DNA from: Arenicola marina
Lineage: Eukaryota > Annelida > Polychaeta > Arenicolidae
Direction of reading: 5' to 3'
Assembly: GCA_964019135.1 (NCBI GenBank)
Contig: OZ025261.1
Span: 27,450,029-27,514,028, forward strand
DNA: 64,000 nucleotides
Positions within the stretch are counted from its first letter, which is position 1; every line of letters starts with the position of its first letter. A model generated the notes under the pieces. That model was not told where the DNA came from and made no database searches. It worked only from the letters and a program-made list of their open reading frames with translations. Shown piece by piece: positions 3,699 to 31,018 of this stretch. Both the position numbers and the translations under genes were made by a program.

Positions 3699-6600
3699 AT
3701 GTCAGCCTACTACTCCCCGTCTCGCTGCGGGACTCCCATGACGCCACAGCTGGCCAAGCTCATGCCCGCCATCGCCGACCACACAATCTCCAACCATCTG
3801 TCCAAGTCGCCGCGCCTCGGCCAGTCCAAACACTACTACAACACAGCCAGGTGAGTACCTACCCCCCGCTAAGATCGATTGATAAAATGTCATCAAACTT
3901 TACATGGGACAGTACTAAATACGTCACTGTTCGATAGTCTTAAGATTGTATCGAAGCTCTCATTGGTAAGAACACCAATCATCTGATATTGATACTAATG
4001 ATATATTAGCAATCTCTGTTGCTAAACACATGTTTCGCGAGTAACTTGATTACAAAATACGGTACAACAATGTGCTTCGTCCCACTCGCTATGAAAGCTT
4101 ACCAGGACCAGGGTACAGAGCAATGAGTAGCAAGTAAGTAACTATTGTTGGCTGTGTATTGTAAAAGCGACGGATATAACTGTTGCCATGGTCACCCCAT
4201 TAGTTATACACGCTTGCCCCGCTGTATTCATAACGGAATCACTTCTCTCACCCATGAGATTAGCGATGGATGGGAGACGCATGAACGCAAAAAAAAAACA
4301 GCATGATTATGAATGTTCCTACATGTTAGCGTTAATAATTCGGAAAATCGATAAACTATAGCGAGATATGTAGGAGATTAGAGTTAGTCATATAGCAATT
4401 CTCCTTATACTTACTTTCAAATTTGTACATTTTTTGCAACTTTGTGGCATGCCGCAAATGAAAGGGCGTGTTGTACGGACTGTTGCCAGAATGCTGGGAA
4501 AGCATGGCCAGGAACTCGCTACATTCGTTATAACGCCCTCATTTATTTCAGGGACTAGCTATATCCGTTATGACGCTCTCATTTACTTCAGGAACTAGCT
4601 ACATCCGTTATAACGCTCTCATTTACTCCCGGGACTCGCTACATCCGTTATAACGCTCTCATTTACTCCAGACTCGCTACATCCGTTATAACGCCCTCAT
4701 TTACTCCCGGGACTCGCTACATCCGTTATAACGCCCTCATTTACTCCCGGGACTCGCTACATCCGTTATAACGACCTCATTTACTCCAGACTCGCTACAT
4801 CCGTTATAACGCTCTCATTTACTCCAGACTCGCTACATCCGTTATAACGCTCTCCTTTACTCCAGACTCGTTACATCCGTTATAACGCTCTCATTTACTC
4901 CAGACTCGCTACATCCGTTATAACGCTCTCATTTACTCCAGAAACTCGTTACATCCGTTATAACGCGCTCATTTACTCCCGGGACTCGCTACATCCGTTA
5001 TAACGCTCTCATTTACTCCAGAAACTCGTTACATCCGTTAAAACGCTCTCATTTACTCCAGAAACTCGTTACATCCGTTATAACGCTCTTATTTACTCCA
5101 GAGACGCGTTAAATCCGCAATAACGCTCTTATTTACTCCGGGAACTCGCTACATCCGTTATAACGCTGTATTTTACTCCAGGAACTCGCTGTACTCTCGC
5201 TACTCCACCGGAGACTGGGATGCATCCAATAAAAGCAACTACAACTTATCGGAGAGGGAGAGGTCCGTAGGGGAGAGGCTGCGTGCTGATGCCTGGCGCG
5301 TTGTCAAGGCAACCGACCAACAGACGCGCGCCAGACAAGCCAGCAACACAAAAAAACTAGGTAAGTTAAGCTTCATTCCTGACCAATATGCTTTGATACG
5401 GTCGTACATTAAGCCTAGGTTGAAATTTACAAAGACATTTATTGCAAAGCGGAACATGATCCAAATTACTTGAAGTAAACGTAAAGATTAAATGATAATA
5501 CATGTCCTGTATAAATATGTATGTCACGTCGATAGGGGAAAGAGTGGTTGACATAAACTTATGGAAGAGCGAACTCTATGAAGAAATACAAGCAGTGGAA
5601 GAAGAAACAGAGAATTTGAAGGTTATTAGCATGGCTTAATGTTAAGGACTAGTTTTGTAACTTTGTACTTTTACGTATTATTTGTCATCAAGCCTAAGTT
5701 TCTTCTATTGTACTGGATAAAACTTACGCTTATTGACTGATAAGCTTGTGACGTGTGTCAGCCCTTTCTCGTTCTTAGTGCATGAATGTGTAGTTTATGA
5801 AAGTTATATGTAATTATTAGCAACTTTACTGCTACATAGCTTCTTAACGAACGCTCAACAGAACCAAAATTCTTCATGTATATAAAAAGAGATCGAGAAA
5901 GATGACTTTCGTTAAGTAAGGATCCATATTATAGTCGGCACACCACCATCGATCGCATCACGGCCGAATGTTGCATGTGTTATATATCAGCACATGCCTA
6001 GTTCACCTTTGAGAACCAGTTCATAATCCAGTCGAAAAGATATTAGGAGATTTACGGTAAAAATAAATTTTGCTACTTACCGTAAATATCCTATTATATC
6101 CGGTACCCTAGAAGTGGGCGTGACGATGGTGGGTGTTCACAAAGATACTGTAAGTACGGTAAGCACATGGATTGAGGATGTTGTGGCCCACAGGGGAGAG
6201 AGTACAGGACATCAGCTTCTGGAAGGAGGAGTTAAACAAGGAGATGAAGGACATGGATATCGAACACGAAGCGCTGGAGGTAACACAGAAGTATACATTA
6301 AAGGACTTTCAGCCATGTCGGTTTGCCAGCACTTGTTGTGATCACATTCAGGGGTCTGGAAGGGGTAAATTGCAACACGCGACACTGGCATATTTAAAAA
6401 ATCGACATTCGACATTGACCCTCAAATTCCAACACTGAGGATCTGAAAAGTGACATCGACACTGATTTTTGAACAAAAAACGACACTGAACTTAACCAAA
6501 AAGCGATACGAAAGGTCGTGAAAAGTCGACATTCAACACTGAAAATTTTGAAAATCGACACTGGACACTGCACCCCCCCCCACACCTTCCAGACCCCTAC

Positions 6601-28215: not shown

Positions 28216-31018
28216 TTACGTCCGCTGAGCCACCGAGTTGAGCTGGTCGCGTATCTTGCCCAGACCGTCCAGCATGGTGTTCAACGTCTCCTTGGACATC
28301 TCCACGTTGTACCTGGACGAGGAGGGGTCCTGTCCAACCCGCTCTGCTGGGTCCTCAATCTGAGGAGGCAGGATATAGAGACATCTCATCATCCTCTCCC
28401 CATGTTATCGCGAATTATGCCTTTACCATTGCTCACGGATTACTCACGCCTCACTGCTATTATATATTTCGTGGTGGCTATAACTTTGAAGATCGACCCA
28501 TCATGCCCATATATGAATAAAATGCATTAGCATTGTGATGAATATCTCCACAGAATGTATACCGTATATCATCAAGTCAGAATACCAGTTCAGCAGAAAT
28601 GTTGTCCCGTATCCGAGAAGCTTGTGCAAGACGACTGGTCGTGATTCCAAGGTGGCGCAAATCATATGTTTTACATATTGGAATTGTCTGGCTGGTATAG
28701 AACACAATTTGAGGATCAGGACATATTTGCAAAGTGCATTGTTACTGCTCTACCGGTTGCGTTACCATGATTACCTGGATCTGAAGGAGGCAGGTTGGTA
28801 GCGACACCTGGTGGTGAGCGTCCCCAGACATCTTTGTGTCCACGCTCCAGTCGAAATCCACGAGACGCGGGAGAGAGACTGCAAACAGGCCATGGATGTG
28901 CGAGGACCGGGACAAGTGTCTGATTCCACTACTAACAAGTTAACCTTTCAACGTCAACAGCGTTAGACGGAATATTAAATCATTAAACCTATACAACGTG
29001 TCTGAAGAACGACATCAGATCATCGAAATATTTAATATGCATAAAAAACTGAGTGATGCATAACTTATATACAGGATAATATTCTGCACATGTTGCTTCA
29101 TAGCAACCAGTCTTCAAATGACCGACTAACGTAGGATTCATCTTATTTTATATCATATAGCACAAAGTTCACAGGTCTGTGTAGTAGAGGGGATATGCCT
29201 TACCCATAGTACTCAGTGCCTTAGCCTGCCACCGTGCTAAGTTGTCTATGATGATTTTAGCCAAGAGGTCCCTTAAGTTTTGGTGGAAATCGGCTGAAGA
29301 AGACAAAAAAAACTCTGTATTTGGTGTTGTAATTATGAGATTTATAATCCAAATACCTGTACTGCGCTGACATTACAACAATATTTAAGATGTAAGATCG
29401 CCACAACAATAGAATGAAATATCTAGTGCAAATAATAAATGATGGGCGAAAGAGGAAATTTTTTCATTTACTAATGTATTATTGTCTGCATAGCAACCCT
29501 CAGTTATTAGTTACCAAAATCTATTAAATCCACTTGGAAAACAAAATAAACCAGCACCTGGAAATAGCTGGACCACCTCAGTCATATCAGATGAGCCTTT
29601 GTATAAAGCAGCTTTCATCAGTCCACTCAGCGCAGCCAGTAGCTATAACAATGAATACACAATCATATATAAATCAGCACATAAAATACTTATCTTGGGG
29701 GCTATGATTACAAATTGATCATTATTTTTTTAACAACAAAGAAGGAAAATAAAATTTGGTGTTTTAAGCCACTTCTATACACGAACTAAGCCAAGCCAAA
29801 ACACTTCACAGAATAATGACATGATGAATAAAACAAGTCTCAGTTGTAAGTCTCAAAGTTCAAACCCACAACCTGTTGGTCTGCAGCTCAGCCAACTGAG
29901 CCAGGGAGGTTCCTCACAACAAAGACTAAAAGTATACATATTTACCAGGATTTGCATATATATATAGTCTATATATATATATGGTATACAGATTATAGAA
30001 TAATAAAACATATTTTGAAATGGATTAAATATGTACATGTTTGCTTTCTATACAGATTATAGAATAATAAAAAATATTTTGAAATAGATTAAATATGTAC
30101 ATGTTTGCTTTCTTGGGGACTGGTATCCAAGGACTGAGCTGTAGTTTTGACAACATCATCTGGGAATGTACCATGGTTCCTGTGTAAAACAGCTTCTTGG
30201 CAGAGCTGGATTACCATTTGTTTAGAAGGAGCCTGAAAACAAATAAATGACAGTAGGTATGATCAAGTTACTAACATTATATATTGATTTACATTGCAAA
30301 TAAAAAACACAAGAACCTTTCAAGTAAGCTGAATTGGATTTTTTATTGATTAAGCAAGGACAGAATACTAGCAGTCAGTCAGTCAGCTTCTGACAGAAGT
30401 ATAGATAACTTTAGCCGCAGACTCCCTGTCTGCGGCTAAGATAACTTGGTCAAATAAATATTATATATATTGGATTTATGTTTACAGCTAGACATAAAGT
30501 AAGACTTTCAGATCATATCATTTATATGTGACACTGCATTCGATTTAAAACCTCTTTTCCACACATTTCTGCCAATTTAGGGTTTTTGACCAATTTGGGG
30601 TTTTTGACCAATTTGGGGTTTTCAACCAATTTGGGGTTTTCGACCAATTCGGGGTTTTCTACCAGCTTGGAGTTTTCCACCAGTTTTTGGTTTTCTACCG
30701 TTTTGGAGTTTTCTACCAATTTTGGGTTTTCCACCCATTTTGCCAGTGTGCCCGTGAACCATAATTAGAGTCTATACCAAAGCCGAGCCAAAGGCAAAGC
30801 AAAGCCCGTTTGGCAAAGGCAAAGTAACCATATTATCGCTCATGTAGCCGCCCACTATCATCCAGCGTCTGGCACGTCTGGTTGTTTTTGTTCATTCTAC
30901 GATTTGACCACAACCCCCCCTAAACGCTAGACGACTTGTAAATGGGCAATATTTGAAACACCACTCCGAATATCACCTTTAAAAGAACATTCAAATGTTG
31001 GAAATTAATGTCATCCAT
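28216..31018 (-). CDS. COMMD9: COMM domain-containing protein 9, six exons
   Basis: COMMD9 is a subunit of the ten-member COMMD ring in the Commander complex, which recycles membrane cargo from endosomes. Coding exons in transcript order are 31018-30977, 30232-30101, 29642-29558, 29293-29204, 28878-28775 and 28359-28216. They sum to 597 nt, 198 codons plus TAA, the same length as human COMMD9 as I recall it. The N-terminal helical domain contains MDDINFQHLNVLLK and QMVIQLCQEA, then LFPADFHQNL. The C-terminal COMM domain shows SLPRLVDFDW, VSLPTCLLQIQIEDPAE and KETLNTMLDGLGKIRDQL. The last is nearly identical to the vertebrate protein. All acceptors are AG and all donors GT. The exon 2 donor (GTACAT) is weak and is duplicated 64 bp downstream. 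The gene converges with GH3 and diverges from the collagen-type gene. Confidence 0.93.
29855..29915 (-). mobile_element. tRNA-like SINE head, COMMD9 intron 2
   Basis: On the minus strand, CTGGCTCAGTTGGCTGAGC (A-box-like) is followed by GGTTGTGGGTTTGAAC (B-box-like). No stable cloverleaf or acceptor pairing is evident, so this is a SINE remnant and not a tRNA gene. Confidence 0.5.
29982..30110 (-). repeat. 64-bp tandem duplication across the COMMD9 exon 2 donor
   Basis: Two copies of a ~64-bp segment each contain, on the minus strand, AGAAAGCAAACAT|GTACAT. The real exon ends at 30101. The downstream copy places the same 13 exon bases and donor near 30036. The segments differ at only a few bases. 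Confidence 0.9.
30565..30745. repeat. 18-bp minisatellite, COMMD9 intron 1
   Basis: About ten units of CCAATTTGGGGTTTTCGA, degenerating to the right. Because 18 is divisible by three, both strands show fortuitous repetitive open frames (ENPKLV on the minus strand). Confidence 0.92.

What the first reader, a model, noticed from the sequence alone, without database searches (positions are those of the whole stretch)
3699..31018. Six splice junctions in three adjacent genes are duplicated by local tandem repeats
Tektin intron 1 acceptor, tektin exon 8 donor, GH3 exon 3 donor, GH3 exon 5 acceptor, GH3 exon 8 donor and COMMD9 exon 2 donor are each inside a repeat whose unit spans the exon-intron boundary. 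Six of about 23 junctions in unrelated genes is far above chance. The repeat seeds differ in sequence, so the shared property is the position. Boundary-spanning minisatellites ('mirages') were, as I recall, reported at amphioxus Adh; if so this window extends that to many genes and to acceptors as well as donors. A mechanism tied to splice sites (R-loops, replication-transcription conflict, intron-targeted repair) is speculation.
Basis: partly seen in the sequence, partly recalled or inferred. Interest (0 to 1): 0.9.

Follow-up and report, generated by a model that had tools for sequence, protein, structure and literature searches.

The report
Minisatellites overrunning splice sites in annelid
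In this annelid worm genome short tandem repeats fill many introns and sometimes run over the exon edge, so that a splice site gets copied several times; this was known from lancelets, and it mostly looks like a side effect of a repeat-rich genome rather than a process aimed at splice sites.

Summary
The six duplicated junctions exist at the stated places. Five score as local duplications by my measure (5 of 48 junctions); the sixth (GH3 exon 8 donor) needs indels. One of the five (GH3 exon 5 acceptor) is a 35-nt copy 299 bp away among SINE-like repeats, not a minisatellite. There are 46-48 junctions, not about 23. The window is not lancelet: its tektin groups with annelids. Boundary-spanning repeats ("mirages"), at donors and acceptors of several genes, are published for amphioxus. 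In 13 genes elsewhere in this genome 16 of 286 junctions are duplicated likewise. Per position, junctions are hit less often (21 of 334) than introns (28%). Per array, donors are crossed two to three times as often as random placement predicts (13 against 4.2-6.1), acceptors are not (4 against 4.2-6.1). Array ends pile up at donors and 36-75 bp before acceptors (bin chosen after a look). Best reading: minisatellites spread through introns until stopped by needed sequence; a donor is short and is copied along harmlessly while the exon-side copy is used.

The parts
3699..10674 (+). Tektin-3/5-like gene, 9 exons: 3699-3850, 5182-5360, 6194-6279, 7350-7487, 8064-8134, 8729-8872, 9188-9410, 9845-9999, 10437-10674
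   Evidence: 97% identical protein P0121
4508..5190 (+). 40-bp minisatellite x 17.3 over the tektin exon 2 acceptor (native cut 5181/5182 is the last copy); 10 of the 15 other copies found keep AG
9988..10308 (+). 33-bp minisatellite x 9.7 over the tektin exon 8 donor (native cut 9999/10000 is the first copy); 8 of 9 other copies keep GT
16998..26685 (+). GH3 (beta-xylosidase-like) gene, 11 exons
18926..19223 (+). 91-bp minisatellite x 3.2 over the GH3 exon 3 donor (18966/18967); both further copies keep GT
19956..20289 (+). 35-nt direct copy (19956-19990) of the GH3 exon 5 acceptor (20255-20289; cut 20268/20269), 299 bp apart, between copies of a SINE-like repeat
23884..24057 (+). Three copies with indels over the GH3 exon 8 donor (23899/23900); TRF reports 56 bp x 2.4 at 23923-24057
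28216..31018 (-). COMMD9 gene, 6 exons
29985..30113 (-). 64-bp duplication (2.0 copies, 96%) over the COMMD9 exon 2 donor (30101/30100)
20766..21074 (+). 25-bp minisatellite x 12.1 that stops 25 bp short of the GH3 exon 6 acceptor: an array near an acceptor that does not cross it

Best explanation
The duplicated junctions are the exon-side edges of intronic minisatellites in a genome with a very heavy minisatellite load. Arrays arise in introns and spread by slippage or unequal exchange that takes in flanking sequence, until purifying selection stops them. At the 5' end of an intron the needed signal is only the last few exon bases plus the GT motif; when it is copied, the copies lie downstream in the intron and the exon-side copy is still used, so the array may reach 9-41 bp into the exon. 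At the 3' end the branch point and pyrimidine tract must stay intact, so arrays tend to stop 36-75 bp before the exon and only sometimes cross. Shown: the arrays, their place relative to junctions, the load, the pile-up of edges, the retained decoy sites. Inferred: that arrays spread (rather than being seeded near intron ends), that selection sets the limits, that the outermost copy is the one spliced.
For: Load: 28% of intron positions in 16 genes have a local duplicate by my measure (44611 of 160151 cuts); in the 13 genes outside the window, points 40-200 bp inside introns 255 of 1696 against 16 of 286 junctions. In 17 of 17 crossing TRF arrays the exon overlap (9-41 bp) is shorter than one unit, so all further copies lie in the intron. 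Edges, 16 genes: left edges in the exon or the first 35 bp of the intron 28 against 13.3 expected; right edges 36-75 bp before the acceptor 13 against 7.0 (P 0.019; outside the window 13 against 6.1, P 0.006); last 35 bp plus crossing 9 against 13.3. Coverage in 11 genes is 22% by 40 bp inside the donor, 4% in the last 20 bp before the acceptor, and levels off there near 160 bp. 24 of the 30 extra copies found in the window keep GT or AG; using one of these would truncate the protein in 22 of 24 cases, yet the 97% identical tektin P0121 carries no extra residues at either junction.
Against: An array that only adds copies in place does not move its edge, so pile-up at donors needs spreading or donor-biased seeding; the data do not tell these apart. 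The donor excess (13 against 4.2-6.1) is not predicted by uniform seeding. Load is uneven: in four CCT genes and GLDC there are 11 arrays in 53 introns, and no donor is crossed by a TRF array (one donor by the other measure). The 36-75 bp bin was chosen after I saw the list of distances, and it is one of 14 bins tested. P0121 comes from another, unnamed source whose gene was not seen and may lack the repeats.
Confidence: 0.62

Rival explanations
1. Minisatellites are born preferentially at 5' splice sites, through a process tied to transcription and splicing (R-loop or replication conflict at the change of base composition, or repair there).
For: Per array, donors crossed 13 against 4.2-6.1 (P 0.0001-0.006) and arrays starting up to 35 bp inside 15 against 5.9-8.4; outside the window 10 against 3.7-5.4 (P 0.003-0.04) and 14 against 5.3-7.4. 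Acceptors show no excess. Arrays at donors are GC-richer (median 0.56-0.60) than deep ones (0.45) (11 genes).
Against: G skew is mixed: of 13 donor-crossing arrays 6 are G-rich and 3 C-rich on the sense strand; GGG density near donors is only about 1.2 times that deeper. Coverage at donors does not exceed the intron plateau. No effect in CCT and GLDC, though with only 11 arrays.
Confidence: 0.2
2. The copies are kept because extra donors or acceptors help splicing, for example by recruiting more U1 or as intronic enhancers.
For: 24 of the 30 extra copies found keep the dinucleotide.
Against: In recent arrays copies stay alike anyway; 5 of 15 acceptor decoys of tektin have lost AG; 22 of 24 decoys would truncate the protein if used.
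Confidence: 0.05
3. The arrays are relics of intron birth by tandem duplication of exon sequence, as proposed for amphioxus globins.
For: The model was published for mirages, and new introns at boundary repeats were reported in human paralogs.
Against: Exon parts of the crossing arrays are short (9-41 bp) against units of 32-127 bp. Of the 13 arrays that end 36-75 bp before an acceptor one also crosses the donor; I made no full count of arrays that fill an intron, and the age of the introns was not tested.
Confidence: 0.05
4. Assembly error.
For: Tandem arrays are error-prone in assembly.
Against: TRF matches within the five window arrays are 81-96% and units carry private substitutions; duplicated junctions are also seen on seven other contigs (C1, C2, C4, C7, C8, C9, C20).
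Confidence: 0.03

Closest known systems
Amphioxus 'mirages' (Adh3, globins BflGb6 and BflGb9; PMC3087553, abstract and passages seen)
   Same: Minisatellite-like repeats across exon-intron boundaries, donors and acceptors; many copies carry splice signals; regular mRNA reported there
   Different: Here an annelid; length and somatic instability not testable here; the original Adh paper was not found under the DOI that I recalled and was not seen
Lancelet PGBD5 repeats over 5' and 3' splice sites (PMC3902484, passage seen)
   Same: Imperfect tandem copies of 60 and 108 bp that include splice sites
   Different: A single lancelet gene; the 108-bp repeat has three copies
Internal tandem repeats at exon-intron boundaries in human segmental duplications (PMC2812944, passages seen)
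   Same: Minisatellite expansion at boundaries, activation of cryptic sites
   Different: Half of the variable repeats are in coding sequence; new introns proposed; recent paralogs only
Intron 1 minisatellites of earthworm metallothionein genes (PMC12783039, passages seen)
   Same: Annelids, large intronic arrays
   Different: Monomers of about 180 bp on average; the passages seen do not report units over a splice junction

Membership tests
mirage minisatellite | tandem unit spans an exon-intron boundary | tested here: met
   five of the six junctions; the GH3 exon 5 acceptor is a single 35-nt copy 299 bp away
mirage minisatellite | unit length in the published range (10-72 bp Adh3, 150-160 bp BflGb6) | tested here: met
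   33, 40, 56, 64 and 91 bp, roughly within the published span; the 299-bp spacing at the GH3 acceptor is outside
mirage minisatellite | extra copies carry GT or AG (many, not all, in the published cases) | tested here: met
   24 of 30 copies found
mirage minisatellite | regular mRNA in spite of the copies | tested here: inconclusive
   only a 97% identical protein from an unnamed source; no RNA of this species
mirage minisatellite | length differences between haplotypes and somatic instability | not testable with these tools
   one assembly, no reads
mirage minisatellite | occurs in a cephalochordate (all cases under this name that I saw; not part of the definition) | tested here: not met
   annelid by tektin tree, branch 99/97; GH3 is 56-57% identical to Branchiostoma proteins; no row named Branchiostoma among the 120 tektins listed, many of them unnamed

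The most novel reading that the evidence does not exclude
5' splice sites are birthplaces of minisatellites: a process coupled to transcription or splicing seeds tandem duplications within about 40 bp of donors in this annelid (and perhaps in lancelets), so that donors but not acceptors are duplicated more often than random placement of arrays predicts.
Probability: 0.2. Interest if true: 0.75.

Novelty: new member of a known kind. Interest (0 to 1): 0.5.

Why it matters
It suggests that boundary-spanning minisatellites are not a lancelet peculiarity: in this annelid genome 10 of the 16 genes examined have at least one duplicated junction, leaving out one myosin whose only hit looks like a copied exon. 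It offers natural tests of how the spliceosome picks one of several near-identical sites, and a split result (donors yes, acceptors no; array ends before acceptors) that makes targeted birth against tolerated spread directly testable.

Tried and rejected
Rejected: amphioxus as the source organism. A first duplication score without a drop-off leaked from arrays to neighbouring junctions and was replaced. A first spliced alignment with too cheap introns gave false tiny exons and was rerun. A null that places whole arrays by final length in the gene gave 17 crossings against 7.24, P 0.0004 (11 genes); seed-based nulls followed. Rows dropped: exons scoring under 20 (5 of 113 in the myosins; 9 of 60 in CCT and GLDC), and junctions of exons under 25; in the event test exons under -15 (2 of those 60). 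Units under 7 bp are left out of the event test. Genes sampled: 8 of about 17 myosin places, and 4 of about 12 places, taken by number of matches and compactness, not by repeats; GLDC was the one gene found. The last two myosins and the CCT and GLDC genes were added after the first six had been counted. One myosin hit (C4a donor 14, offset 1343) looks like a duplicated exon, and one (C8 donor 8) is at the threshold score of 16. Of the 21 hits 15 are donors and 6 acceptors. GH3 exon 8 counts in the event test as starting inside the donor, because TRF leaves out its first copy. The splice-site scores use a generic matrix that I wrote from recall, not one trained on this genome. ARAGORN, and Rfam at gathering scores, found nothing in the window.

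I found no report in annelids; of these only name annelids or polychaetes, one search listed 12 of 73 papers, and only open-licence papers are held.
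Full report
What is there. The stated range holds three genes: a tektin (3699-10674, +), a GH3 glycosidase (16998-26685, +) and COMMD9 (28216-31018, -). I built the models by eye and checked tektin and GH3 with a spliced protein alignment: against a Ridgeia tektin (76% identical) it returned every internal junction of tektin; against a Capitella protein every GH3 junction from the exon 1 donor on; against a Branchiostoma protein all of these but the exon 8 acceptor, 6 bp off. 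Four lie in plain minisatellites or a two-copy tandem duplication, one (GH3 exon 8 donor) in three copies with indels, and one (GH3 exon 5 acceptor) has a 35-nt copy 299 bp away between SINE-like repeats. There are 23 introns, so 46 junctions, not about 23.

Which organism. The best named relatives of the tektin are the annelids Ridgeia and Paralvinella (76%) and Platynereis (71%); an unnamed protein is 97% identical. In a tree of 18 tektins the window sequence, that unnamed relative and these three annelids form a group with support 99/97. Branchiostoma proteins are in the database, but GH3 is only 56-57% identical to them. The assembly has 867 Mb. So this is an annelid, species unknown.

What is known. 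Repeats across exon-intron boundaries are published for amphioxus Adh3 and globins, with both boundary types, and for PGBD5 (PMC3087553 and PMC3902484, passages). Acceptors and several genes are therefore not new. I found no report in annelids in eight searches, of which two name annelids or polychaetes.

Is it more than chance, per position. For every cut point I asked whether an ungapped copy within 1500 bp matches on both sides. Window: junctions 5 of 48, introns 2340 of 14425, exons 55 of 3551. Eight myosin genes on seven contigs: junctions 9 of 150 plus 6 of 46, together 15 of 196; introns 35800 of 108443. Four CCT genes and GLDC: junctions 1 of 90, introns 6471 of 37283. Together 21 of 334 junctions (15 donors, 6 acceptors) against 44611 of 160151 intron positions (28%) and 378 of 19813 exon positions. 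Points 40-200 bp inside the introns, a nearer control, are covered at 255 of 1696 in the 13 genes outside the window, where junctions have 16 of 286.

Is it more than chance, per array. With TRF arrays (unit at least 7 bp, score at least 50) in 16 genes and 176 introns there are 101 arrays; 13 cross a donor and 4 an acceptor. Placing one unit at random in the collapsed introns predicts 4.2 each (anywhere in the gene; donor P 0.0001) or 6.1 each (own intron; donor P 0.006). Without the window: 10 donors against 3.7-5.4 (P 0.003-0.04), 3 acceptors against the same. Myosins alone 10 against 3.2-4.9 (P 0.001-0.02); CCT and GLDC 0 against 0.5; window alone 3 against 0.5-0.7. So there is a modest donor excess, carried by the myosins and the window, and none at acceptors.

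How it probably works. Array edges are informative. Left edges pile up in the last exon bases and the first 35 bp of introns (28 against 13.3). Right edges pile up 36-75 bp before acceptors (13 against 7.0, P 0.019; a bin chosen after I had seen the distances, and one of 14) and are not frequent closer than that (9 against 13.3). Coverage shows the same in 11 genes: 22% by 40 bp inside donors, 4% in the last 20 bp before acceptors. That is what one expects if arrays extend until they meet sequence that must be kept: a short signal at the donor, a long one (branch point, pyrimidine tract) at the acceptor; this last point rests on general knowledge of splicing signals. All 17 crossing TRF arrays overlap the exon by less than one unit, so in the gene models the native site is the outermost copy.

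What the copies look like. In the window 24 of the 30 extra copies found keep GT or AG. At five of the six junctions at least one extra copy scores as high as the native site or higher; at the GH3 exon 8 donor the native site is stronger by 4.5 bits (generic matrix). Of the 24 intact copies 22 would truncate the protein if used. At those five junctions something other than the local score, most simply position, has to decide. The protein of the 97% relative has no extra residues at the two tektin junctions, which fits, but its gene was not seen.

What is open. Spreading and donor-biased birth predict similar edges. GC content outside arrays rises within 36 bp of both intron ends alike (0.45 and 0.44 against 0.40), so composition alone does not explain why donors and acceptors differ. 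G skew and G-runs give no clear support for an R-loop reading. The sample is 16 genes, gene models outside the window are partial and rest on distant references, and load differs among genes.

Noticed in passing
5536-5621 (+): A second version of tektin exon 3 (86 bp, same length and phases, 658 bp upstream of 6194-6279), possibly a mutually exclusive exon; the related protein P0121 has the 6194-6279 version.
   Followed up: partly
36470-39619 (-): Non-LTR retrotransposon-like pair of reading frames: reverse transcriptase (RVT_1, over the cut-off) and an endonuclease-like one below the Pfam cut-off.
   Followed up: partly
49794-50981 (+): Open frame with collagen triple-helix repeats and, by eye, a hydrophobic stretch after them, maybe a membrane collagen.
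   Followed up: partly
43958-45764, 52215-55178, 59570-61273: Large minisatellites outside the three genes: 40 bp x 45, 12 bp x 248, 22 bp x 77.
   Followed up: no
51983-52182: Run of 200 N.
   Followed up: no
19740-20260, 16170-16300, 17560-17760, 21665-21800: Recurrent SINE-like sequence with tRNA-like motifs (by eye) in and near GH3; ARAGORN finds no tRNA.
   Followed up: partly
L027-L029 (G000:C4:365001-395000): Myosin gene with several clustered copies of two exon types (four matches each near profile 110-154 and 590-640), perhaps alternative exons.
   Followed up: no
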